NCBI GenBank assembly: GCA_020081605.1
Contig: JAHREC010000062.1
Coordinates: forward strand, 4,459,758 to 4,523,757
DNA from: Albifimbria verrucaria
Lineage: Eukaryota; Ascomycota; Sordariomycetes; Hypocreales; Stachybotryaceae
Length of the DNA stretch: 64,000 nt
Direction of reading: 5' to 3'
Each line of letters opens with the position of its first letter. Within the stretch, counting starts at the first letter, position 1. The notes under the pieces were generated by a model. The model saw nothing but the letters and a program-made list of their open reading frames with translations. It was not told the origin of the DNA and did not search any database. Below, one piece after another: positions 30,395 to 61,277 of the stretch. The translations under genes were made by a program, and so were the position numbers.

Positions 30395-32927
30395 CCCACA
30401 GTGGTTTTGCTTAGAATGATACACAGCCCATGCCGCCTTGGAACAAAAAATACCCCATTACCGCAAGTGACTGTGTAGATGAAAGTAAAAGGATAGTGGG
30501 CCAAAATTAGATGGTAGATGGCTCCCCTCCCCAAAAATAAAAACGCGAGCTATTATATATCCGTGAAAGACTAAAAGGCCCTTTATGACCCGATCACATT
30601 GCTATAATGAAGACCTGAAGGAAACAAGTCTACCCAGCCACACATAAACCTGTCAGACTATGATCTATTTGGCCAGATGTCGAATTTGAGGGGAACAGTT
30701 TACGATCCTAAGATAGTGACATTTGAACTAAATGTTCTCCCCTTCTCTAGTGATTCGTGAACGACGAAGATACGGAAGAAGAAAAGTAAATGTTGCCAAA
30801 ATTGAGCTGGTGTGGAATTTGGTTTCCAGAGCCATAGAATGTATGAAAGCAGAAAAACATTGATAGTGTCTCTAACGGATTTTTAACAGTTTTGAAACTC
30901 CTAGTTATATTTTTCGTTGCATAAACCAGTTAATACTCCTGATTCCAGTGCAACACAACCCCAACCGACCAACACAAATTGAGATAACAGCACCAACGGA
31001 GTCTCTTTAGTAACAGCACATAGTTAGAAGTCTTAGCAGCTCTTTGGAAAGAAGCCTGGATTTTGCTAATGGCTTCCAATGACTAATTGTCATTAGCTCG
31101 AACCTCGGACAACATTGAACTCCCTCTGCTCTAGTAGGCGACCACAACTTGGGACATCCTTGCTATCGACACACATGTAACATGACAGAGCGTCAGATAG
31201 TCCTAGCTACAAATCTTTTAATATATGTATAGCTAGATTCAATGAACAAACATAATTTTCTGACTCCATAGGCAGTGTATAGTGATACAGGGAGGCCCTT
31301 GGGGTCGTCTATATAGAGAATATTTCCTTCGGACTCAAGAAAAGTCAACGATTTATCTAGCCACGTAGATATTTATACGTTTAGTTACTCATACCTACCT
31401 AGGTTATTTGATTAAACTAGCTAGCGCTCTTAAAGGTTCCTGCTAGGAGGCATTTACTATTGAATGCGCTGTCACTCCTCAGGTGAACCTGCATATGCTT
31501 CCTATAATAGTCCACAGAAGAAAGACACAAAACACCCCAAATAATAAGAGACGAATCTCATTAGATGAACTTAAAATCAGTCCGCTGGGACTCGTAGCAA
31601 GTATGAAAATGGTTACTACGTTGAAGTGTATAAGGATAATGCGCATTGTCTGTTTGAAATTTACTCATGCTTCTGGGGCTATCATCCCATGGATAAGGGT
31701 TTTGCTTGCGTTGCCACGTAACTCATACTAGATAGATCCTAATGTTACAATCGGTTTGACAAGAGTTTCAAACACGAGAAGCCGACACCAGGTATGGCTG
31801 GTCCGATAGGGGCGCTTGTCTTTGGAAGAGTGATAGTTCTGCATAGTCAAGAACGCAATGGTAAAACTTTATGCATATCAAGCATGACGCAAGTCATGAT
31901 ATTATCCTGTTTGTGCCTGTTTGGTGACTCCTAAATGTGGTTTTCAATGGAGCCGGAAATGACCCATGCATATTAAAGATTCTGCCGGTTATTTCATGCT
32001 TTCGTCAATAACCGAGTTCGATGCCTGTGCAGCTCTGTCGATCATCCTCCTGCTGATGGAGCCGAATCGCTGAGATCTCATCGTTCTGCTTAATATGGCA
32101 CATAACAGGATATGACTGATAGCGGAATATTATGCAACAGAGCCATTTGATCCACGTATCCTATTTCTCAACCCTCGTCAATATCAACCATTGTAGACTG
32201 GTTGACTGAGATGTAATGAGATGGATGACAATAAATTGAATATGAGCTAAGAGTTCAGTCTGATGGACGCTAAGAAGGATGGTTTTTGTAGATTCTATTG
32301 GCCATCTAAGACTTCTATCATGCGAGAATCACTTATACACAGGGATCCTTCAGATTGGTAGCCTAATATCAGCTCGAGTTTATCGGAGATCCACGGTATT
32401 GGTGCGGTTTACAAGATGCAGGCAGAACTACAGCCTGATCACACCCTCCATGCAGATCTGTTCATTCAGCTTGCACTGTAACCCTAGCCGTTACTACCTT
32501 CACTTTTCATGTATCAAGTCAGAACGTCTGGATCTTGCGGCGGCTGATATTATTGTAAGCAAGTCTTTAGCCGCCGGGTAAATTATTGGCGAGCAGATAC
32601 TCTCACGGCCCCAGCGGCAACGTCGATAACAAATTTCGTGCATGTGTTGATTCCAGACTCTGATTCCTTGACAAAAAATGCACGCAAGGTCGTATATCTA
32701 ATATAGGCTGAGGTGTTGCAGAGACGCGGGTAGACTTCACGGGAAGATGTTTCAGCTTGCGTGGTTATGGCTGATGTCGGGCCGTAGCCGAATACCGATT
32801 TTGGGGATGCATCGCAGGATAATGTATGTAAGCTATGAATCATATAAGAGGAGCACAACCCGCAAAGAACAGAACAAATTCCTTTCAACGACCAAGGAAA
32901 ATTCATACGCTTACTTCCATTGATAAA

Positions 32928-33760
32928 ATGGTATCTTTCAAATCACTTTTACAAATTCTTTCGGTGGCTGTTGGGGCTGTCAACTGTCTTGATTTTGATC
33001 AAGTCAGTGACGATGTTAAGAGTGCCATACTTGCACGCCAGAACGGCATTTCCTATACGCAGTACTGGGCGAATGAATACGCGGATCTGAACTGGACTAG
33101 CGGTCAAGGAGGAAACTACCAAGTGATATGGGACCAGGGATTTGGTGGCAACTTTGTTGTCGGAAAGGGTTACAGGCCAGGAGGTGACAGGTATGTGATC
33201 GGTACTGTGTTTTTTTTTTTATTTTTTTTTAACAAATATTTAACATCTCTGATTCAAACAGGGTTGTAAATTACACTGGAAACTTCCAGGTAAATGGAAG
33301 GGCCTACCTTGCTCTGTATGGTTGGACCACAAGTCCCTTAATTGAATGGTATGTTATTGAGTCTATGGGTATACACAACCCTTCAGACAACCCGAATGCC
33401 ACCTGCTATGGCACCCACCAAACCGACGGTGGAACATATGAGGTTTGGATGAAATGGAGAGTTGATGCTCCCTCGATTATTGGTGATGCAACCTATCAGC
33501 AGTTTTGGTCAATTCGAACCAGACGGCACGTCGGCGGGAGCATCAACACTACGGCCCACTTCGAAGCCTTCAAGAAGGCAGGCCTGAAGCTGGGACGACA
33601 CAACTTCATGGCTGTTGGTATTGAGGGACAACAAGGTAGCGGAGCAGCCAATATTACAGTAGGTGTGCCACCTCCAACGCGGGTCGCGGAGTCAGCAACA
33701 CCTACCCAACGCACTGAGGTTCCTCGTCGATCCAACACCTGTACTGCAAAGCTCTCCTGA
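32928..33760 (+). CDS. Secreted GH11 endo-beta-1,4-xylanase
   Basis: Secreted hydrolase cutting the xylan backbone. A signal peptide (MVSFKSLLQILSVAVGAVNC) is followed by a propeptide-like stretch and the jelly-roll domain starting SYTQYWANEYADLNW. One intron with two T tracts (about 33190-33261) interrupts GGDR/VVNYTGNF. The nucleophile Glu lies in PLIEWYVIESMG and the acid/base Glu in AVGIEGQQGSGAANITV; both are retained. The thumb region PSIIGDATYQQFWSIR matches the family. Differences from standard GH11 enzymes are the ESMG in place of the usual ENFG/ENYG and the RRHVGG block. A Pro/Thr/Ser-rich tail of about 30 residues follows the domain and ends in Cys-containing sequence without a complete carbohydrate-binding module. 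The frame is intact. Confidence 0.85.
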
Positions 33761-37214: not shown

Positions 37215-38636
<1,422 letters not shown>

Positions 38637-39366: not shown

Positions 39367-41793
39367 TCAGTGATAACTTACGACACTGATCCACCGGGCG
39401 AACCACTTCTCTACTGTCTCCTTCGCTTCGTCTATCAGGCCGAGTTCTATCATAGCAGTTATCAGCCTCTGAATATTGAATATTCTTGTATACCTTACCA
39501 AGAAGAAGCTGAACCCCACCACGGATACCAGACTCAAGGGCTGACGCGATCCAAGCATGTGTATGCGAGGTATGTTCTCCCACGAAGATCAACTTTCCAG
39601 TATTAGCTTTCACAGTTTAAATGGCTCAAATAGACGGAAAACAAACATGGCTATGGGTCTTGAAGTATTCAGGCAGATATGTCTCATGATTTCCAATGGT
39701 GGGTGAGGCCCATCCTCCGGATGCAAGTTCATCCAGAGTCCAGCAAATACGGGAATATTTGCCTGTGTATTCATCCAATGCAACTTGCCCATGAATCTCT
39801 GCCATAGCGTCGATGACATACTGCACGTGCTGCGATTCGGGCACGCCAGCCCACGGAACACCGTAAGGATGACCAACTTCATATGATGCAAGAACCGATG
39901 CTGGACCTGTTCCGTTTATGTTATATGAAGGGTAGCATATGCTTCCAATGCCAGGTATGTCCGTCGTAGTAGAGCACGACCCATAAATGGGCTTTTCAAA
40001 GTGCTCCCAAAAACGGGTACGGTACTCAAGCGCAACTTTGCAGCCAGACTCGTAGACTAGAGTATCAATAGCGTTGCGCATCGTAAATTGAATGTCTGTC
40101 AAGTCAGGACAACTTTCTTTGTTTCCAAGGTATGACTTACCAGGCAAGCGCATTCGCTGAACAACTGTGAAAGGTGTGGCGATAACTGCGTAGTCATAGT
40201 CTTTTGATTCGAGTTGTTCAGAATAATTCCCGCGCCATTGTAATGTAAGCCTCTCCGTTTTTTATCAAAACGGATACGCTCAACCTTCTTCCCGAACTTG
40301 ATGTTGTCACCAAGCAAAGAACGAAATGCCTCGGGCAATCGGTTCATCCCTAACGCCAAGTCAATCAACGTAGTGTTTAGAGCATTTGTCCTGCGTACCG
40401 CCATCGATAGTTTTCATGATAGTTGACGGTGAGAAGATGACGGAGTAATACAACTAAAACTATTGTGAGCTCCGAGTATATCTTACGTCGAAGAGATGTT
40501 TTACTCTACTGAAGAAAGAACTCTGGTCGATCCCGTTTGTAATAGCGTTCGCGTCAGTGACAGAAGCTTTCAAGTAGTTCACCATATAGGCGAACTCAGA
40601 CCATTGATCTCCAGGCAATCCGCTTGGCCCACGATTCTCTGCAGTATGAGATTAGCTGAAGTACCAATGGATCCAAAGATTATGAGACGTGCTCAAAAAG
40701 TCTGCATGGGCCTGCCAGAAATTCTCGGTAATGTTCAATAAGAAGTCCTGACCCGGGAGTGCGGCGTTGATTTGCTGACGGAGAGCAGAAACCGAGTCTG
40801 GATATTCAATTCTCGGAGGACCTAAGGAAGAGTTGAGTGCAAGGTCAGCCTGGGTAGGTGGTAGACCATTTTGCAGTCTTGTCCCTTGGAAGTAGGCGAA
40901 GCCATTGGGACTATTCTGAATAAATGGAATTAGATCAATACGGAGATCTGCATCAATTCCCTCGTTGAGACGATTCATTTCTTCTATGACCTGGAAGACA
41001 ACAGCCTGATCGGAAAGGTTATAAGTGGTGTTGTTGATAACAGTCATCTGTGGGAGACGCATAGGGCCCATCTCCTGATATGAATAGTCTTTGGGGCCAC
41101 CAGACAAGTACTCGGTGCGGACGCGGCCTCCCAAGCGATTGCTCCCTCAATCAAAGTAAGGTTCGTGAGACCAGCCTGCTTCAAGACGAGGTATGTCATC
41201 AACCCAGCCATGCCTGCACCCACGATGGCAACCTCACTGCCCTTTGCAGCTTCAACGTCAACATGTTTGCCATTCTTACTCTCAAGAAGAGCAACTCCAT
41301 CGAACCATGGACCCCAGATATTAAACCCAGTCTCATTGGTCATGACAATTCGTTCATTCGTACCGTTGGATCGTCTCTTCACAATGTTTCCCTGTGGGTG
41401 CAGCACATATTCAAATATCTGAGGAACACTACGCCCTAATAGCCGGCCATACTTATCCCAAACAGAAAGGCAGTCCCCAGAATTAGCATCCTTAGGAATT
41501 AACCACACAAGTCGGTGAGGTTTTTCTGAACTAATTCTGCGAGCCACGGTATGATGCGCATCGATCTCAGTCTCAGCGCTACAGGAACCATAGGTGAAGG
41601 TAACTGGGCCTATTGAAGAACTGCGATAAACTGCATGGATATTTGCCAATCGAGAATTGACCGCGAGCTGCGTGTCAATGTGCACCGCTGGGATCGAGGC
41701 ATAGGTCAGTTGGCTCTGACTCAATAAGAGTCCACCGGTTAAGAGTACGTTCGTGAACCACAACATTTGAGTCGGACTGAGCAGTTTCAGCAA
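39367..41793 (-). CDS. Secreted L-amino-acid oxidase (flavin monoamine oxidase family)
   Basis: FAD enzyme that would oxidise L-amino acids to keto acids, ammonia and hydrogen peroxide. The N-terminal hydrophobic segment LWFTNVLLTGGLLLSQSQL suggests secretion. The dinucleotide fold is VAIVGAGMAGLMTYLVL, followed after a frame slip by RLGGRVRTEYLSGG. Further exons give IDGGMNRLPEAFRSLLGD, KDYDYAVIATPFTVVQRMRL and, near the end, LIFVGEHTSHTHAWIASALE with GIRGGVQLLL, the FAD-contact end of the family. One-base slips lie at 41144-41146 and 40255-40256. There is also an in-frame TAA (40652-40654 on the plus strand) that no normal intron removes. The gene therefore may be inactive in this isolate. 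Trichoderma-type L-lysine oxidases are the closest class I recognise; the substrate is not determined. The C-terminal exon joins are approximate. Confidence 0.75.
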
Positions 41794-47197: not shown

Positions 47198-50100
47198 ATG
47201 ACGATGTCAGAAGCATCATGTCCCGTCTCAGGGTCGATAAGAGGGAGATGTCCTGCTGGTATGATTGGCTCTGGTGGTAGCAGCCGAGAGACTAGCAGAA
47301 GCGCTGGGTTTCCGAGGGGATGTGCATTTTCCGGCTTTGCTCAGCCAGGTGACATTCATAGTGCTTTCGATGTGAGTTAGGAGAATGAATGGCAACCTGC
47401 ATGGGCTAATGGAGACAGATCCCCAAGGGCGTCGATGCTGACGAATGGCTGCGCATGAGGTTAGTTGCTCCCCAATACAAAAAGCTGAATGTGTCGTTAA
47501 CGAAGTGTAATGCAGGGAGCGCAAGACTATCAATCAGATTTTGTATCACAAGATGCCATCTGTGAAGGAGCTCAGTGCTGCCGCTAGTCAAGCCGAACTC
47601 GATGCTTTCAACGTTAATGAACAAGATGCATTAGCCGTGGCCCTGGGTGCACCGGCTCGCCAGGTCATTCTTAGAGCGCAAGATATTGGACCCTCAACCG
47701 GATGGAGGGATGGATATCTCAGTGTTGAGCATGGAATGTGTCCTCCAGACTACGACGAATCTCCTGGCGCTCTCGCAAAGTCGCCAGGCCGGGTATGGTC
47801 GGACTTGTGCGAGCGCCTACCTGGAGTTGTTGCGCGTGGCAGAGTTCGGGCTGCTACTGCTGCACTGCCTCTAGTAGAAGGAACAGAGGATGTCATTCCA
47901 GATCAAGCACTCTGGGCTGCCGTCGTTGCGCTTGGCATGATATGCTCCATCTACCGTTTCGAAGATAGAAACGACGGCCAGGATGGAGTAACTATCAACC
48001 CTTCCAACACAAGGCCGAATTGCCCTATGGGCGATGAACTGGGTGAGGAGCTTGCGAACATTCCTCTTACAGTTGCTCTACCGTATTACCAAATCTCCCG
48101 TCGATTGGGAAGAGTCCTCCCACACCTGTCTTTCCCCGACCAATCCTCTTACAATCTCAAGATACGAGACGTGACTTCAAAAACACCGTATCTGGCACGT
48201 TTTGACAACACCGAATTGCGATGGCCAGCTTTTGGAGAGAGAGCAGAGGTTGCATTTCTGAAGGGCTGTGCGGATACATCAGGTATGGATTTCTCGATGT
48301 ACTTGTTGATAACTTCTGACATATTTTGTAGCATCCTTTCAACATGGACCTGACGCAATTGCTGCTTGCCAGGAGCACGTTATGAACAGAAATGTTGAAG
48401 GGTTATTGCGAGAAATGATTCGACTCAAGGAGATTCTTGAAAGAATGCCCAACGCCTTTCACTCCATCTCAACAAACCCGAACTCAGGCGAGAACTATGT
48501 TCCGGCTCAACAGTGGGTTCACTGGGGCAAGTTTTCGACACCGCTTTCTAGAAGATGTCCTGCAGCATCTGGCTTGCAGTTCCCTCCATATTTGGTCATG
48601 GATGCATTCCTTGGTAGAAAAAGTGAGCTAAAGCAATCTCAAACCTGAGTTACAGATTTGTTGTGATTCTTGATTCCAGAGCCTAGAAACTTACGAGCAA
48701 ATAGGTACAAGTCGTTTCTGGGCATCGAAGGTGTGCATCTTCGAGCTTGGCTACCTTCGAATCATCGAGCATTCATCGCCGCGATTGAATACCATTACCG
48801 AATTCCCGAATTTGTAGAGCAGTCAGGCGACCCACGCTTGATGGGTGTTTTGGATGGCATAGTCGAAGCTTACACAGGCGAGCGTGGATTCATGGGCGTG
48901 CACAGATATAAAGTCTTTGGTATCCTCGAAGTTGCCGGCAAAACTGGCCGAACGGAAACAAACGGCCTTTCAGGAGCTGCAGATATGTCGCGACCGTGGG
49001 AGGAAACTCATCGTCAATTCTCCGAAGCCATGAAAGAACGCCTTGAGCCCTACAGAGGATCCCTGGCAGTTGAGCCACACGAGATGCGAGGAACCTTCGA
49101 AGAGTGCCGATACGTCTCCCGTATTTTCAGCCGCATGCCTGTGGACACTGATCCTGCTCGATCTATAGCAAAGGTCACCTTAGATATCCATGACACCGGA
49201 ATCTCTTTCAAACCTGGCGACCGGCTCGCCATCATGCCATTGAACAACTGGGAAGAGTGCGCCAGAGTTGCTACCGCGCTTGGATTGGAAGATCTCATTG
49301 ATGTACCGCTCGAGGTAGAAGGAAAATGGGCGCGCTTCGAAGCTCATTTGGCATCGGTTAGACATGCGATGCAACGCAAACTCACCGTCACAGACATACT
49401 TCGACGCGGACACTTGGCACCTATCACCAAAGAACTGGCCCTCAAGGTTCATACTCTGCTGCACGCATCTTCAAACACTGTTTTACAGGTCCTAGCCACA
49501 AATGAATGGCCTGTACGTGGCTCACTTGGTGATCTACTTCAAGGTGCTCTTGTGGACACACCTCCTCAAATATGGGACAGGGCGTTCGATTTGGACAAAA
49601 TTTCAACATGGCTTCCTGATCTTATTCCCTGGAGGTGCCGCGAACATATTCAATTGCCAGCTATACCGAGGAGCTGCTTCCAAGTACTGTCGACTTGGCT
49701 GTTTCGCGAGCCGAGTTTGAGCTATGTGACGCATTCGCTAAGGGGAGTCAATTTCGCGAGCTGGTGTTTCGAGCGGGTTTCTAAACCCACATCCTGCCAT
49801 GGACGTCTTTGCATCTGATGAAGAAGAGGAGATGTTGATCGGAGTCTCACGTCCTGTTGCATTCCAGCTGCCCCATGATTCAATGGCGCCTTGCGCTTTC
49901 TTCGCTGGAGGGAGTGGCATCGCACCATTCCGGGGCTTTTGGCAGTCACGCTTAGCGTCTGCTGGCCTGTCCGGAGGACGTAATTATCTCTATCTGGGAG
50001 TTCAGTCCCGTGAGAAATTCTGTTTCGAAGACGAGTTGAGAGAGCTTGTTCATGCGGGTTTCATGGAAGTTCATCTTGCTTTTTCAAGAGATTCTCGTGG

Positions 50101-52082
50101 CCTTGCTTATGACGCACACACTCGAGATCTAGTGGACAAACAAATACCTCCTCGGTATATAGACTCGCTTATTGTTGAACAAGGCAACACTATATGCGAC
50201 TTGGTCATGTCCAAAAAGCAAGGCGGTTTGGGTGGACACCTATTTGTCTGCGGGTCTGTATCCGTCTTCGACTCAGTAATGAACGGAATCCGAAAAGCGT
50301 TGTATACCTACCGCACTGCAACTATGGACAATGTCGACATGATTATCAACAAAGCTTTCGCTGAACGGAGATTTATGCTTGACGTTTTATGACACCTAAG
50401 CCGCTACCATGTGATTTGCCTACCATTTCACTCTCGGATCTTGCAACTCATACTGGGCATCGAGACAACTCGCGCATGTGGATTGCGGTACATGGAAGTG
50501 TATACGATGTGACTGACTTTTGTCCAATGCATCCTGGAGGAACGCTAATTATTCAGTCCAACGCTGGCGTTGACTGTTCGGCGTCATTCGATAAGCTTGC
50601 TCATACCAATAACCCCGAAGTTTCGAGTCTGTTGACCAAGTATTTCATCGGACATCTAGCGCCAAAGCCCGACTACCAGAACAACGAAGCTCTCTCGCTG
50701 CTTTATGACCTGTGGGCGAACTACTTGCGGACCACAGTCGAAACATTAGTTGCACATCAATTCGAGATGCACGAGATCACAGGCGGAACCAGGGAATCTT
50801 CCTCGGCATGGGACCCAGCCGGCTCCTCGAACATGTGGTTGCAGGAAAGCTTACCAAACAGCTATGCAGTACGATCTTTCTACGGTTATCAGAGCCGGCT
50901 ATTACAAAGTGGATTCAAATCCTTGTTCGGGAGAAGCTACAAGAGCTTGTCCTCAAGTTGTCCTTCAATCTTGCTAGTGCTAGTGGACCAGGCCTGAATG
51001 CTAGGCTACCGGATGTACTCGGGACGATCGCACGAGCCAGGGCTAGTCCTGATGCAATTACTTGCACTAAGGAAATTGGTCTTGTGGGTAACTTGGTTTG
51101 CGACCAGGACTCCTCTCTACGGTTCCATGAGCGTGGTGTCTTTGCCTATGCTGCTCGGAGCGTAGAGCTTGACATCGAATTGCTGGAAGATCTTCGCCAA
51201 GAAGCATGCTTAGGCATGGATGCATTGGATGCAATAGCTGCAGACTTTATGACGTCCAACGACGACGATCAAGATGAGGAGTTGGATAGGCTTGCTGAAG
51301 TGTCAAGCTTTCTATTGCAGCTACTCGAGCGTATGGCTCGACGTTTAACAATCTTCTACACGAAGCTTGCGCAGTGCTCGGTGTATAATCCTGCAATGGA
51401 GCGCAATCCAGCCCGTTCAAGATGGGCACGTGTCTTGACATACATTCGCGATGGCAGCTTCTTCGTTTTGACCAGTACGGCGGCGGAGAGCAACGCTATA
51501 AAAACAGGACAAAAGTCAACATACTACATGTCAAGATCGAACCCCAACCAGAATGTTGACTTTGATAATGTAATGTCGCGGATAAATGCAACTCTCGCAT
51601 CCACGAAACTGCGCTCGCATGACAGGATCTCTCGTCCCCAAACCCTTAATGCTGTCCATCATGACAGAGGGAGGAAAACAGGGAACCTTAGTGCTGCTGC
51701 AGAACATGAAAATGCAAGTGCGCTTAAGGCGATGAGTCAATTTGTGGAGAAGAACCGCAAGGCAATTCACAGGCTAAGCAAGCTACCCGTGGTGGGTGTG
51801 GAGACGCTGGAAGATCTTCGCAAGATGTCTGCTGGGATGGATCGACATGGGGAAAGCCCAGCGAGTCTGCCCAATTTCGAAAAAGAAGAGATGAACGGCC
51901 CCATGAACCACCTTCACTCGAGGTCTTCTTCATTCCATCGCGCACTTAGTAAGATGAGCCAGTCGTCGCGGAGCAGATCCCCATCGTTGAGCAGGCAGCC
52001 CTCAAGAAGCAGCATCTCAAGCCAAGGCTCCTCGCCAGATATCCCATACTGGGACAGCAACTATTGCAAAAGATCTGAGTGA
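47198..52082 (+). CDS. IDO-like heme domain / NADPH-FAD reductase / cytochrome b5 fusion
   Basis: Single gene, five exons, about 1,560 residues after bridging frame slips. Residues ~1-560 are related to indoleamine 2,3-dioxygenase: SFQHGPDAIAACQEH, LVMDAFLG, LPSNHRAFIAAIEYHY, and RGFMGVHRYKVFGILEVAG with the probable proximal heme His. Residues ~560-995 form a sulfite-reductase/P450-reductase-type FAD and NADPH module: KPGDRLAIMP, RTYSIAS, GVSSGFLN, FFAGGSGIAPFRGFWQSR, LYLGVQSREKFCFEDEL. There is no flavodoxin domain. Residues ~997-1090 are cytochrome b5 (HPGG and KLAHTNNPEV carry the heme histidines). The remaining ~460 residues are helical, then Ser/Arg-rich, and unrecognised. Slips are at 49627-49629, 49742-49745, 50385-50388 (T run) and 50785-50786. 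Internal electron flow NADPH-FAD-b5-heme is inferred. The substrate is unknown. Confidence 0.82.
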
Positions 52083-53660: not shown

Positions 53661-55899
53661 ATGTCTCAAACCTTCGTTCATGACAGCCACCACGGCAGCC
53701 AGCAACCCCACTCGAAGGACACCCATAAAACGATCCGTGCGCTATCGGCATTTGACGCTGGCGGAGAAGATAGTGGAGGTGCAGCCTCTCCAAGCATTCC
53801 TATGGGAACTCGGGAAAGCAATGCATGCATAGTTGAGCAGATTGCATTTGATCCTGCTTTCAGAAATAAAGAATCGTCGAAATCGCAAGGAAAACGGAAT
53901 AATTCTTACGCAATGCCAACTTATCGAACGTCATCGCCAAGAGCATCACCAATGTATGCTTTCCAATTTCCTTGAATCCAGGATTTCACTAAGAGTAAAA
54001 CAGGTACCGCAGGGATAACCACTCTGTGCCGCACATCGTTGATGGGAATCAAGGCGTCGATGATATTCCTGGCGAGTATAATGTACGGCCACGTTCGGCT
54101 TCGACTGTTTCGTGGAGTGCAACCTCTTGCCGCTCACAGTCTAGATCGCCATCACATCTGGTGTCTTCCACCTCCTCAATTCATGGGCCCAACACTCTGC
54201 CCGGTCTTCAAGTGAAAAGCGACGCCGACCAAGATGGCCTTGAGCCACTGGTTGAGGAAGAGTTCGACCCTGCTTCATTTGACCTAGTGGTACCGGCGAG
54301 CGGGCTCACCAAGTCCTACAGCCTGGAGACTCAGTCTGAGCTACTATTCTCAGCTAAACATCTCGCCACGATATTTGATGACCCGTCCCTTCTACAGCGC
54401 TTCACAAACTATCTCCATAAATGGCGACCAGAGTCATTACCCCTTCTAGTGTACTATCTTGATGCACGCAAGGCGCTGAAGGCTGTTCAGTACGCCAATG
54501 CCTTGAGCGCCCATCTTCAAGTGATTGAAGGACTTGATTTCACTGCGGGCCGAGCTCAACCCATTGCGGATCAAGCAGTTCGTGAGAAAGCCGACAAAGC
54601 TTTTGAGACCCTCCTGAATGAGGATCTTCCTGCGTTTATTACGCAAACCTATATTCAAACAGTCAGCCTTACCATTAAACGGCGGATTGCGAATACCCTA
54701 CCTACTCAGCTACGAGAACAGTCAGAAGGCCTTGCGGAGGTGTTCTGTCTGACTGACCCATCGAGACCTGACAATCCAATCGTCTTTGCAAGCGAAGGTA
54801 TGATCCCCTAGATCTGATTTGAAGAGTACCTGGTTATTGAAACTTGGCAGAATTCCATAAAACCACCCAATATGGCATGAGCTACGTCCTTGGACGCAAT
54901 TGTCGTTTTCTACAGGGACCAAAGACCAATCCTTTCAGTGTTAAGAGAATCCGCGAAAAGCTGGCAGCTGGGAAAGAACATTGCGAAACATTCCTGAATT
55001 ACCGCCGCGACGGTTCACCATTCATGAATCTCCTCATGATCGCACCTCTCCTTGACTCTCGGGGCGTAGTCAGGTATCACATTGGCGCTCAAGTCGACGT
55101 ATCTGGTTTAGTGAAGTCATGCGCTGGGTTAGAATCGCTATCGCATGCGATGGAGAGAGAAGCTCATCAGACCTTTATGGGACTCAAAAGGGAGCAGCAG
55201 CAGGTTTCAGAGGAAACAGACTCGATGAATGAGTTCCGGGAGCTGGCTGAAATGTTCAATCTGGCAGAATTAAAAACCGTCCGAGAATCCGGTGGCGTTT
55301 TGCATCGTACCCAGCAAGAAGACGTAGCGTCTACCGAAAGAGTTCACAACTGGCACAGACCACGGCTACTAATCAGTGACGATGCTACCATCGACAGAAG
55401 GAACTCGGATCCGATCTTGCACGATATCGATATTTCCAACAGTGGCCGGCTCAGCGGTGTCTACGAGCATTATCTACTGGTTAGGCCGTTTCCAAACCTT
55501 CGAGTCCTCTTTGCCTCTCCTTCACTCCGCGTCCCTGGCATGTTGCAGAGTTCCTTCGTGGATCGCATTGGGGGTTCTGAGACGGTACGCGATACCATCA
55601 TACAGGCTTTTGCCGAAGGTAACGGGATCACTGCCAAGGTCCGATGGACGACCAGAATAGATCACCAAGGTCGAGGCCGGCCACGCTGGATTCACTGCAC
55701 ACCACTTCTGGGTCTTAATGGAGCTGTTGGAGTCTGGATGGTTGTGCTTGTGGATGATGAATCCGACACTCACAGTCGACCCCAGCGAAGAGATGCGCCG
55801 CCCATTAGCAGACACAATGTTCATCCCAAACGACAAGATGATGATCAAATGAGCTTGGGCAGTTTTGCCGAGGCCCATAGGGTCAATGACGATTATTAA
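53661..55899 (+). CDS. RGS-LOV blue-light photoreceptor
   Basis: About 711 residues in three exons with uninterrupted frame. A Ser-rich N-terminus leads to an RGS domain at ~205-345 (SELLFSAKHLATIFDDPSLL, FTNYLHKWRPESLPLLVYYL, AFITQTYIQTVSL). The LOV domain at ~345-465 carries VLGRNCRFLQGPKTNP, with the photoactive Cys of NCRFLQG, and ends NLLMIAPLLDSRGVVRYHIG and AQVDVSG. An amphipathic linker follows, then a PAS-like segment near 560-670 (LRVLFASPSLRVPGML; RWIHCTPLLGLNGAVGVWMV). RGS-LOV proteins such as Botrytis BcLOV4 bind flavin and move to membranes in blue light; membrane recruitment here is inferred from that. The intact Cys indicates a working photocycle. It lies 1.6 kb downstream of the heme/reductase fusion. 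Confidence 0.88.
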
Positions 55900-56486: not shown

Positions 56487-57449
56487 TCAAGCCTTATAGG
56501 ACTCCTTGACCCATGTCCTTGTGTCCTTTAACTGCGGGTGAATCTTCTTCAGCTCCGCAATGTTCGCTGCATAACCTTCATTCTCAAACCATGCGAACAT
56601 ATTACGCATCTCTGTCGACATCCAGAAAACTGCCTTGACAACCAATCCCCATGTCTGCGGTGACTTGGCGCCTGTTTCCTCGAGGAATATTTTGTCCAGC
56701 TCCTCAAATGTAAGCTCGTCGCCGGCGAGCGAAATCGCCCTGTTCTTGAACTGTTCCACGTCCAGAAATGATTTGGCTGCAAAGATACCGATATCTTCTG
56801 TGGCAATGAGCTGCAAAGGCCTATGAAGGGTTTTCTTCCAAGCGGTGGTGAAGATTGAAGCCATATTCTTGACGTTCCAATTATCCATAAAAGCCACCGG
56901 GCGCAATATAGTCCATGTCATGTCACTCTTTTCGGCCTGCTTGATCAAATGGTGCTCAATGTTATGTTTGCTGATGAAATGAGGCACATCGGTGGGGTTG
57001 TCAATAGATCGGTCGCCATGCCGGTCTACAGAGGAGTAGACAAAGTGCTTCACGCCATGTTTAAGTGCTGAGTCAACGAGCGCTTTTCCCTGTTGTTGTT
57101 CAATCGTGGGTCCATCTTTGTTGAATGCAGGTACCTATAATGCTTGTGTTAGCCTTTCATTGTATCAAGCGATCTTTCATATGCTGCTCCTTACCTGAAC
57201 ACTAAAAACTCCCCATATAGGTTGACTTGAAGCAGCTTTGGCAGTCTTGAAAACATTTTCCGTGTCGTTTAGATCGCCCTGGACAATTGAGATGGCTGGT
57301 GACTTAGCCTTGAGCTTCTGGGCTGAAGAAGAGTTGGCGTCACGGGTAAGGGCAAGGATATTGAAGTCGGCGTTAGCTGCCAAAAGAGCATTGACTACGG
57401 CACCACCTTGATTGCCGGTGGCGCCAGTGACTAGAATGGTTCGACTCAT
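56487..57449 (-). CDS. NmrA-like NAD(P)-binding protein
   Basis: Atypical short-chain dehydrogenase/NmrA family protein of about 300 residues. The N-terminal MSRTILVTGATGNQGGAVVN is the Rossmann GxxGxxG motif. NILALTRD and IVQGDLND follow as expected, and VKHFVYSSVDRHGD replaces the catalytic YxxxK region with the NmrA-type pattern. MTWTILRPVAFMDNW is another family landmark. One intron (near 57135-57190) splits WGVFSVQ from VPAFNKDGPTIEQQQGKA. The frame is intact. NmrA-like proteins sense NAD(P) redox state or bind transcription factors; some are metabolic reductases. Which applies here is not decided by sequence. It is convergent with RGS-LOV. Confidence 0.87.
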
Positions 57450-58174
57450 GACGATGAGATTGGTTGTCTGAGATGGGTGTTTATGGGTAATGAGTCTTGC
57501 TCGGGTTATGTGTGCGTAGCTTGAAGTTTTCGAAGATGCACTTCGGATGTGTTGTATAAGATGTGTGATGGAAATTGAGATGCATCATGGATGGTATTGA
57601 CTCCAATCATTTATATATACATCTCTACGGGTAATCTATGCACCCCATGATGCGCTCGGTATTCCTCGCATTACCATGATTGTTCATCATTGAAATGTGG
57701 ACTAAGCAAATCTCCCCACTTGTGAAACAGTTAACCAATAAGAAATGGCTCGGTATTTGCGAGATTGACCGACGAGACATGCCAGCTAAATTAGTTCACG
57801 GACTCCGATTAGGACCGGGGCTAACCAAGTGATTACCAATCCCTATTGTATCTACCCTTGAGCCTCATCTGAACTAAAAGGATAGCCAGTGTGTGAGGCA
57901 CATCTATGGGAATTATTTTCAATAGGACAACATATCAAGGTGGTGCAGCTGCGGAATGGTTTGTTTCTAAACGGTAGTGATAGCAATCTGAATCATGTTC
58001 CATAGCGAATTGCAAGACTTGTACATGACGCATTACAGGGAATATCATTCTTCATAATCGGAAATATCGCCATTGGTTACACCCATCGTGTCCCTTTTGC
58101 CTGAGGCGTTAGCTGACTTGACCAATGCGAAGCCTGTTTCTTAAGTCTTTGAGCCTTTGCTATACTCTGAAATT
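57450..58174. other. Intergenic spacer
   Basis: About 725 bases upstream of the NmrA-like gene and downstream of the dynamin gene. No gene or clear repeat is present. Confidence 0.5.
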
Positions 58175-60487
58175 CTAGCTCGTTGCCTGTACTAGCGTAT
58201 GTGGCCACCCCTCCTGGTATTGCGATTGACTTGGGTGTATAGGAATTGACAGTATTTCGGGTTCTGCTCTATCATGTCCCGCTGTCGACAATGATTCTGA
58301 GTCGTTTGGAACCAATACGTCTGATTTTGCTTGTATTTGCGGATGAATAGGAGCCTTTAACCCTCTGTGCCTATGTAGTCGCTTGATATCCTGAAGACCT
58401 TTTTGCAACGTTCTCAATTTCTCGGTGAGGTTCGACCGTTCAAACTCAGTTTCCTCGCTTTCACCAACAAGTTGCGCAACCTCCAAACGATCGAACTTCA
58501 GAATCTTATCGGGTGTTAAGAGGGATGGCAATTTGCTGATCAGGCATCCTTCAATAGCAATGACGCTGATGTCGTCAATAAATCTGTCCAGGGCGACCTG
58601 TACGAGAAGAATTGAATAGAGTTAGACAGCAGCAGATGATGTTCAAGTGCGGCAGAAAGGCTTACCTTGTAGTATGCTTGCATATAATCCACCGCTATTG
58701 AACTTCCAAACCGATTCATATCTTGCTCAGTTTCGTTGAGAAAAATGTCCACAATCTGGGCAGGATTTACGTATATCTTGTTGTCAGGGTCTTTGAGATG
58801 TTTCCTACCAAAAGTCTCATTGATCTTTCTAGTTATTGCGCGTTTGTTTCGTGCTCGCTGGGCCTCCTGCACATTTATAGTGAGCTGGGGTTGTAGGTAA
58901 TAGCATGAAGACCATTGTGTGGTTGCAAAAGCCCCTCAATCGTTTGGTCCATGTCCATCTTCAACTTTTCAATCTCGTTATTTAAAATAACCAGTATCTC
59001 GTCCGCAACCTCGTTAGCGGCAGTTTGCTTAATGATCAAGCGGGTAGCTTCATATACGCTGCCAAGAATACTTTGCGTTAGTTCGAGCACAATGCCCCTC
59101 CATGGTTGACATTGTAGAGAGAATAGTTCGCCAATGATTAGAGCGTTGAACAGTCCTGGAAGCTCACAACCTCTACTCAAACGCATTCGGCTTTTGACGT
59201 CTTCAATGTAGTCAGAGCGTGTGATCCTTCCTGGGCCTGTATCCTCATCCACATCAGAGTCTATGATGGTTTGGCTCTCTCCATCCGATCGCATTTCGCG
59301 GGAGAATGCGGCAAGCCGATTCTGGACCACTGCGCGAAGACGTTTATGGTAGCCGTCAAATGTCTTTATATCCCCAAAAATACATGACTATAGTTTCCGT
59401 CAACCGCAGCTTTTGTCAAGGAAGTAAAGTCCTGACTGACACGAGACAGGTACTGTAGCTGCTCTTCTGGGGATGACCTGGTAGCTCCGAGTCGATCGAG
59501 CCTAAGTTTGCAGTCATGAATGTTGCGTTCAACATCTTCGATCAAACTTGGCAATTGCTGCATAATCTGTTGTTTCAAAACGGAACTGAGTCGGGACTTG
59601 AGGCTCCGAATACCACAGCAGTTGGAATCAATGGAAGTCCATACTCCTTTATTGAAGAATTCTTCTTCCGCGGTGTCTCGCTGTGCTGATGTGTAATCCC
59701 TTTCATCATAACTTCGGTTTTTAAGAACATGCCAGCCAAGATTCAACGTCACATCTTTGTTCAAAGCAAGATCAACCCATTTGCTCTCACTATCAGATCC
59801 TTCATCCAACTTATCAGGCTTGGTAATGAGACCTATAGTGCGCAGTCCATCAGGATCAGCTGCTTTTGCCAAAGCAGTTACCTCCTGAAGAACGTATCCG
59901 GTATTTGCAGAAACCACAGCCAAGATGATACTGCGAGGTCTCTTCATAAAGTTGGTTACCATGTTTCTGACCATCTCCACATTGTCCGCAGACTGTTCCT
60001 TATTACCTGCCTTGAACAATCCAGGTAGATCGACCATTGTAAGATGTGGCTGGTCAGGTCCAGACAGCTCGACACGAAGAATGTCGTTGCTGAAGATCTT
60101 AGTACCTTGAAGGCCCATTTTATCCTTTGCTTCTTCAATAATTTGTTTGAGCCCGTCATTCTCAAGATTGACCTCCGGCTGCCAGCTGGTCAAAACATCC
60201 TTTTCATCTGGATATCTTCCAGGATCAGGTATGATTGACACCTTGACGTTGGTTGTAAGGTCTCGTCGCAGTATAAGCTCAGTAGCGAAGCGAGTGCAAA
60301 GGCTGTCTTTGGTAGGAAATGACATGCCCGATATGGCTTCAAGTACGGAGCTTTTACCAGCACACTGGTCGCCACAAACAATGATCTCAGGTAGATCAAC
60401 ATATTGATTGATGCCCTGAGATCGAAGTTGATCGATGATGTCGAGGAGATCTCTATGATCCTTTGATTGAAGATCGGCAGCAGACAT
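58175..60487 (-). CDS. Dynamin-family GTPase with GED
   Basis: Large GTPase of the dynamin/Mx group, about 750 residues. The G domain starts near residue 35: G1 is GDQCAGKSSV, G3 is TMVDLPGLFKAG, and G4 is LITKPDKLDEG. The middle/stalk region contains LSSVLKQQIMQQLPSLIEDV and LLQPHNGLHAITYN. The C-terminal GTPase effector domain has MQAYYK (splice) VALDRFIDDISVIAIEGCLI. No membrane span or PH domain is present, as in fungal Mx-like proteins. Frame slips are at 59372-59375 (joins VFLG to DIKTFDGYHKRLRA) and 58887-58890 (joins TYNP to QLTINVQEAQRARN). GTPase motifs are intact. Such proteins remodel membranes or oligomerise on targets; the target here is unknown. The next gene on the same strand encodes a deaminase-like protein. 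Confidence 0.88.
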
Positions 60488-61277
60488 GGCGTGTAATAGT
60501 CAAGTAAAGAAAGGAGCTTGTAGGAGTGAGTTGGAATGATTCTCTGAAAGAAAGGCTAAAATGCGATGGTAGATGTGCTTGGTGCGTGAAAACAAAAAAG
60601 AATGAGAAGTTCAGGAGCGTGATCCTGTTTTATCCTCAATTCTACGCTAAAAAGCGAGACCAAACTCGCGAACCACGCCTGTGGGCGGGGATGTTTGCCT
60701 CATGGTAGGCCTCCTGGTAGGCCTCTTGCAGCTTTATCAGGCAGCAGGGTAGGAAGCGTCGGGCAATATGCATATTTGAGTAGCATTCTTGGTGTTGTAA
60801 CGCTTCAAATCAGGCATTCAGGCATAGACACGTGGCTGTCTGTTTGCTTCAACAGAAAGATATTCGTCACTTGTGCTGCGGTCATACCTCTGAAGATTGT
60901 TAAACCAGAGATGGCATTTCTTTGCAACACAATCGGTAACTTAAATACTACGTCAATCAAGCCATTGGTCCATTCCTATGGCCTACATCTGCATCAATCA
61001 CAAAATGAGGGGAATACATCTGCTCACAAAAACAACAAATACCAATTTCTATCCGCCTGCAGATTTGTTGCTAAAGCTAGCCAGAGACATGACAAACTTC
61101 CATCCATAAATCTATGAATAGACATTTCTCAGGGATTGTAGCGATTTTCTGAAAAAAACGTATACTTGGAATGAAAGATTCACTGAAAGCTTGGTCCTTT
61201 AATCATACAGAAAATGAGAGAAATGAGAGAATAAGAAGGTCATTCGTAATTTTAGCAATCATGTTAAAACCCATAAG
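60488..61277. other. Intergenic spacer
   Basis: About 790 bases between the dynamin gene start and the deaminase gene end. No gene is seen. The region next to 60,487 should hold the dynamin promoter. Confidence 0.5.

What the first reader, a model, noticed from the sequence alone, without database searches (positions are those of the whole stretch)
47198..52082. Natural fusion of an IDO-like heme domain with its own NADPH-FAD-cytochrome b5 reduction chain
The sequence shows one coding unit with an IDO-like domain, a reductase module with RTYSIAS and GGSGIAPFRGF but no flavodoxin, and a b5 domain with HPGG. In animal cells cytochrome b5 and P450 reductase have been reported to keep IDO heme ferrous. 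Having all these parts in one chain suggests a self-sufficient dioxygenase or monooxygenase. I know of no described enzyme with this architecture.
Basis: partly seen in the sequence, partly recalled or inferred. Interest (0 to 1): 0.88.

Follow-up and report, generated by a model that had tools for sequence, protein, structure and literature searches.

The report
Fungal self-powered IDO-like heme enzyme
A fungal gene joins an IDO-like heme domain to an NADPH/FAD reductase and a cytochrome b5 in one chain; matching intact proteins occur from a chytrid to mushrooms to moulds, so it looks like an old oxygen-using enzyme whose substrate is unknown.

Summary
The window is not one open frame. Besides four probable introns, its 3' half changes frame at least four times. 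Similar breaks occur in this genome's HSP70 and CCT chaperone genes, and 274 of 276 near-invariant family positions are kept, so assembly errors are likelier than a dead gene.

Best reading: an old, self-sufficient, His-ligated heme oxygenase fed NADPH to FAD to b5 to heme, probably a monooxygenase; substrate unknown. Ten literature searches of an open-access library found no description. New variant of a known kind: the sequences are public, the enzyme apparently unstudied.

The parts
47204..47371 (+). Exon 1: N-terminal segment with CPVSG / CP / GCAFSG cysteine motifs; likely start codon at 47204
   Evidence: Matches P0003 residues 1-56; similar Cys-Pro motifs in many relatives
47372..47418 (+). 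Probable intron 1 (GT..AG, 47 bp)
   Evidence: Homologue match continues in a new frame on the other side
47460..47515 (+). Probable intron 2 (GT..AG, 56 bp)
47516..48282 (+). Exon 3: N-terminal part of the IDO-like heme domain
   Evidence: Pfam IDO 4.5e-5; 77.7% identical to P0003
48283..48331 (+). Probable intron 3 (GT..AG, 49 bp)
48332..48622 (+). Exon 4: IDO-like domain, including the Ser404 region (P0003 numbering)
   Evidence: 96% identical to P0003 residues 325-422; near-invariant residues
48623..48704 (+). Probable intron 4; acceptor unclear (one ending at 48679 is in frame but adds 8 residues that five homologues looked at lack)
48705..49060 (+). C-terminal part of the IDO-like domain; proximal heme His codon at 48901-48903 (His488 of P0003)
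   Evidence: His in 119/119 and 188/188; fold match to IDO1/2 from a relative's model
49061..49835 (+). FAD-binding module of CPR/NOS/SiR type with RTYSIAS at 49641-49661; two frame changes, near 49.63 and 49.75 kb; outer borders approximate
   Evidence: FAD_binding_1 2e-7; frame changes; fold match of relative P0164
49836..50388 (+). NADPH-binding module with GGSGIAPFRGF at 49907-49939; ends RRFMLDV at a frame change near 50.39 kb; left border approximate
   Evidence: NAD_binding_1 7.2e-8; S881 R882 D883, C936 and F982 188/188
50434..50658 (+). Cytochrome b5 domain, axial His codons 50530-50532 (HPGG) and 50602-50604
   Evidence: Cyt-b5 5.5e-18; His1030 187/188 and His1054 188/188
50659..52082 (+). 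C-terminal region and variable tail, no Pfam match; frame change near 50.93 kb; true end uncertain
   Evidence: The piece after the frame change is 51-68% identical to P0001, P0002 and P0003 by tblastn; no Pfam or NCBIfam family reported there in P0003

Best explanation
One gene of a filamentous fungus (by identity in or near Stachybotryaceae) encodes a roughly 1600-residue self-sufficient heme oxygenase: IDO-fold heme domain, then FAD/NADPH reductase, then cytochrome b5, then a long C-terminal region. Shown: the order of domains, single-chain homologues, conservation of the heme, flavin and nucleotide motifs, a wide distribution in Fungi. Inferred: NADPH gives a hydride to FAD, the b5 carries single electrons in place of the missing FMN domain, and the His-ligated heme is reduced and activates O2. 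A permanently attached electron supply fits a reaction that consumes electrons in each turnover (monooxygenation or a similar oxidation, perhaps of an aromatic metabolite) better than kynurenine-type dioxygenation, which needs electrons only to start. The window copy is probably an intact gene misread by indels in the assembly.
Against: No activity, spectrum, transcript or substrate is known. Both structure models belong to relatives and are of low confidence (mean pLDDT 55 and 62), and no model holds all domains, so the b5-to-heme route is untested. The Foldseek match has TM 0.55 by target and rmsd 9.1. PMC13142367 says that whether b5/P450 reductase act on IDO1 in vivo is unclear, and for the related PrnB b5 and P450 reductase gave no product (PMC11791213, passages). 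The window copy has at least four frame changes; a recent loss of this one copy cannot be excluded. The median homologue breaks no near-invariant column and 53 of 188 break two or more, so the window's two changes are within the ordinary range, not proof of function.
Confidence: 0.72

Rival explanations
1. A self-primed tryptophan (or indoleamine) 2,3-dioxygenase: the reductase and b5 only keep the heme ferrous, as proposed for animal IDO.
For: IDO fold and conserved His; b5 and P450 reductase are reported reductants of human IDO1 (passages of PMC13142367 citing Maghzal 2008, Vottero 2006, Pearson 2010; those papers not read). Ser404 aligns with the serine of GGSA in a canonical IDO of the same genome, weakly (hhalign probability 35%, E 4e-4).
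Against: The genome also holds separate IDO genes. The Pfam IDO match stops at profile position 211-214 in 8 of 8 relatives scanned (one of them, P0190, is a partial protein that ends soon after), before the Phe226/Arg231 region, which did not align to the canonical copy.
Confidence: 0.18
2. A nitric-oxide enzyme: an NO dioxygenase working like flavohemoglobin (His-ligated ferrous-oxy heme plus attached FAD/NADPH reductase), or an unrecognised fungal NO synthase.
For: Functional layout like flavohemoglobin or NOS (recalled); best single-sequence PDB match is the nNOS reductase; some members are annotated 'related to nitric-oxide synthase, salivary gland'. The source of fungal NO is unsettled (PMC10889981, PMC4948021, passages).
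Against: The heme domain is IDO-like; the label probably comes from the reductase part. I found no experiment linking this family to NO. The NOS-like knockouts that were tested in Neurospora and Magnaporthe gave no change in NO (passages); whether any of those genes is this family was not determined.
Confidence: 0.07
3. The window copy is a decaying pseudogene.
For: At least four frame changes in about 1.3 kb and no second copy found in the genome. Two of three RPB2_6 domains in this genome lie in one open frame, so breaks are not everywhere.
Against: The same kind of abutting or overlapping frame change occurs in 4 of 5 HSP70 loci laid out and in 3 of 6 multi-piece CCT loci laid out; 274 of 276 near-invariant residues kept.
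Confidence: 0.12
4. Heme or redox sensor rather than catalyst: N-terminal Cys-Pro motifs and two hemes report heme or redox state.
For: At least two CP dipeptides in the first 60 residues of 128 of 188 full-length members. That CP motifs can be heme-regulatory is recalled, not tested.
Against: A complete NADPH-driven chain with conserved catalytic-type motifs is costly for a sensor (inference).
Confidence: 0.05

Closest known systems
Indoleamine 2,3-dioxygenase (PF01231; human IDO1/IDO2, fungal IDOs)
   Same: Fold of the heme domain and, by motif reading, the proximal His; Ser of the GGSA motif aligns weakly
   Different: Phe226/Arg231 region not alignable; reductase, b5 and C-terminal region fused on; separate IDO genes coexist in the genome
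[quoted passage not shown] PMC11791213 passages)
   Same: His-ligated heme, relatives of IDO/TDO with chemistries other than Trp cleavage
   Different: Natural-product enzymes; no attached reductase is mentioned in the passages seen
Self-sufficient P450s (P450 BM3; fungal CYP505, recalled) and nitric-oxide synthase
   Same: Heme oxygenase and NADPH-FAD module in one chain; same reductase family
   Different: Heme domain of another fold and His-ligated; no flavodoxin domain matched; b5 instead
Nitrate reductase, Ncb5or (recalled)
   Same: b5 paired with a flavin reductase in one chain
   Different: Different reductase family and order; no IDO domain (recalled, not tested)
Flavohemoglobin (recalled; Gardner review PMC3820574 seen in a search listing only)
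   Same: His-ligated heme plus FAD/NAD(P)H module in one chain
   Different: Globin fold; no b5

Membership tests
IDO/TDO fold family (PF01231) | IDO fold of the heme domain | tested here: met
IDO/TDO fold family (PF01231) | Proximal heme histidine | tested here: met
   His488 188/188 and in the window; placed opposite IDO1 His346 by motif reading, since the profile alignment ends just before it
Tryptophan 2,3-dioxygenase (true IDO) | Phe226/Arg231 substrate motif (recalled) | tested here: inconclusive
   Pfam match stops before it in 8 of 8 relatives; low-confidence profile alignment puts a conserved Gly opposite Phe226; not aligned by hhalign
Tryptophan 2,3-dioxygenase (true IDO) | Forms N-formylkynurenine from tryptophan | not testable with these tools
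   needs an enzyme assay
CPR/NOS/SiR FAD-NADPH module | FAD_binding_1 + NAD_binding_1 with RxYS, GGSGIAP, SRD, conserved Cys and terminal aromatic | tested here: met
Diflavin reductase (CPR, NOS) | FMN-binding flavodoxin domain | tested here: not met
   No flavodoxin match in P0003, P0120, P0279, P0252, P0250, P0269; short spacing between modules
Nitric-oxide synthase | NOS oxygenase domain | tested here: not met
   No NOS oxygenase family among Pfam matches of the same six full proteins, which match IDO instead
Cytochrome b5 | HPGG and second axial His | tested here: met
   Cyt-b5 5.5e-18; His 187/188 and 188/188

The most novel reading that the evidence does not exclude
Founding family of a new class of enzymes: old fungal self-sufficient His-ligated heme monooxygenases, an IDO-fold counterpart of P450 BM3 in which cytochrome b5 replaces the FMN domain, working outside the kynurenine pathway in a metabolic step kept from chytrids to mushrooms and moulds.
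Probability: 0.4. Interest if true: 0.85.

Novelty: new variant of a known kind. Interest (0 to 1): 0.63.

Why it matters
A natural single-chain IDO-fold enzyme with its own NADPH supply would be a new design for self-sufficient oxygenation, useful for mechanism and biocatalysis; I know of no other IDO-family enzyme with an attached reductase (recalled, and not found in the searches). Its conservation (the chytrid protein P0279 is 58% identical over 99% of a query made from two divergent metagenome fragments) points to an unrecognised step of fungal metabolism. Database names such as 'sulfite reductase alpha' or 'nitric-oxide synthase' hide it. The claim is testable with one purified protein.

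Tried and rejected
Rejected: that the four frame changes are introns (pieces abut or overlap). Not supported: that this is one of the published fungal NOS-like genes (the passages seen give no such link). No sign of a biosynthetic cluster: of the 57 other ORFs of 130 residues or more in the window (62 listed, five of them in this gene) I scanned 30 against Pfam, and no PKS or NRPS domain appeared; the other 27 were not scanned. The extra N-terminal 900 residues of P0001 (a Paramyrothecium gene model that also lists hydratase and transcription-factor domains) have no match in the window; it looks like a merged annotation.

Led nowhere: no relative confirmed in bacterial/archaeal or viral contigs, with two peptide patterns each (53 and 66 pattern matches, none confirmed; low sensitivity). 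A plasmid search with the NADPH piece gave 70 records, all under 60% identity, some annotated sulfite reductase. Literature searches found no description of this architecture; the library holds few subscription papers. PMC8639356 (HDAO superfamily) is not held. TDO and PrnB are not among the 50 VIA rows shown; that is no evidence against kinship. The IDO-only protein search could list only proteins of about 270-855 residues that share words with the query, so it does not exclude distant stand-alone relatives.

Full report
What is in the window. On the + strand between 47.2 and 52.1 kb, single-frame pieces match, in order, Pfam IDO, FAD_binding_1, NAD_binding_1 and Cyt-b5; the IDO and FAD pieces alone are slightly below Pfam's curated scores, while the intact relative P0003 passes all four. 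The genome is a 48.4-Mb, 41-contig assembly. The closest protein, 84% identical over 94% of the query, is from Paramyrothecium foliicola, followed by Stachybotrys at 77-78%, so the host is probably a fungus in or near Stachybotryaceae (inference). No second full copy was found in this genome; separate IDO genes are present.

Gene structure. Three GT..AG introns of 47, 56 and 49 bp are well supported and a fourth, after 48622, is probable, though its acceptor is ambiguous. Against the intact 1642-residue Stachybotrys chartarum protein (P0003), the window matches residues 1-1603, with four further frame changes near 49.63, 49.75, 50.39 and 50.93 kb where consecutive matches abut or overlap. Introns cannot explain these. 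The match also runs through a stop at the 3' end, so the end is uncertain.

Error or pseudogene? In HSP70 genes of the same genome, five junctions of this kind occur in 4 of the 5 loci that I laid out; three loci with a single matching piece, and one overlapping piece of the C10 locus, were left out. In CCT chaperonin genes, overlapping pieces in different frames make five junctions in 3 of 6 multi-piece loci laid out. Many ketoacyl-synthase domains are also split across frames, though introns may explain part of that. Against this, 2 of 3 RPB2_6 domains lie in one open frame, so the rate is moderate. The window pieces keep 265 of the 267 near-invariant columns covered (at least 185 of 188 homologues alike; 276 columns in all); the nine uncovered ones fell in a stretch I had cut out, and all nine agree. 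The median intact homologue breaks none and 53 of 188 break two or more. Assembly indels are the likelier cause, but raw reads are needed.

The fusion is real and widespread in Fungi. A search with the translated pieces found 389 proteins, 120 listed, of which 117 list all four Pfam domains by my reading of the table. An IDO-only search gave 98 proteins, many of which look like fragments of the same fusion; because of its length and word limits it does not exclude other stand-alone relatives. A third search with a chimera of two divergent fragments found 399 proteins (120 listed), with names from Dothideomycetes, Chaetothyriales, Onygenales, Leotiomycetes, Pezizomycetes, Agaricomycetes and the chytrid Gaertneriomyces (class names from my own knowledge of the genera). 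A Pfam scan found all four domains in the chytrid, Volvariella, Ascobolus and one metagenome protein, FAD_binding_1 being below its cut-off in two. A FastTree of 60 chosen sequences, rooted by me on the chytrid, broadly follows taxonomy and shows two clades that each hold Dothideomycetes and Leotiomycetes, as expected of an old duplication; several deep and inner nodes have low support. No relative was confirmed in bacterial, archaeal or viral contigs at low sensitivity.

Anatomy. In 188 full-length proteins His488 of the IDO domain, R734-T-Y-S737 (FAD), S881-R-D883 (NADPH type, recalled), C936 and F982 are invariant, and the b5 ligands are 187/188 and 188/188. F982 sits where CPR-type reductases end (recalled), and the b5 follows at a nearly constant distance: 50 residues in 155 of the 165 proteins with the pattern, of 302 fetched. 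No flavodoxin was matched in six proteins scanned, so b5 may take the place of the FMN domain as one-electron carrier (inference). The C-terminal region has no Pfam match; that it is helical is an impression only. Of 188 full-length members 128 have two or more Cys-Pro in the first 60 residues.

What it does. The conserved His and, weakly, the GGSA serine are kept, but the Pfam IDO match stops at profile position 211-214 in 8 of 8 relatives scanned and the Phe226/Arg231 region could not be aligned. Together with separate IDO genes in the same genome this argues against plain tryptophan cleavage. P450 reductase with or without b5 supports human IDO1 in vitro, though its role in vivo is called unclear (PMC13142367, passages), so the electron path is plausible; for the related PrnB such redox proteins gave no product (PMC11791213, passages). 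I favour an NADPH-driven oxygenase of unknown substrate, more likely monooxygenase than dioxygenase.

Literature. Ten searches of the held open library found no description of this architecture; most subscription papers are not held, so this is not proof that none exists. Papers on fungal NO say the enzyme source is unsettled (passages); some members of this family are labelled nitric-oxide synthase, probably because of the reductase half.

Noticed in passing
window and G000 genome-wide: The assembly seems rich in small indels: HSP70 and CCT genes, and perhaps ketoacyl-synthase genes, change frame between abutting or overlapping pieces.
   Followed up: partly
47204-47371 and N termini of homologues: CPVSG / CPxG / GPRGCxF cysteine motifs at the N terminus of the fusion, seen in part in many Ascomycota and Basidiomycota members; possible heme-regulatory or metal-binding motif.
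   Followed up: partly
G000:C10:6758426-6759720, C10:6410713-6411905, C33:725175-726447, C10:3964261-3965553: Separate IDO-family genes in the same genome, matched over the Pfam cut-off.
   Followed up: no
54841-55896 (+), 56490-57584 (-), 59369-60499 (-): Downstream neighbours: a PAS-domain protein, an NmrA-like protein in two pieces and a dynamin-like GTPase.
   Followed up: no
32832-33757, 37738-38367, 39629-41146: Upstream neighbours: GH11 xylanase, old yellow enzyme-type oxidoreductase, flavin amine oxidase.
   Followed up: no
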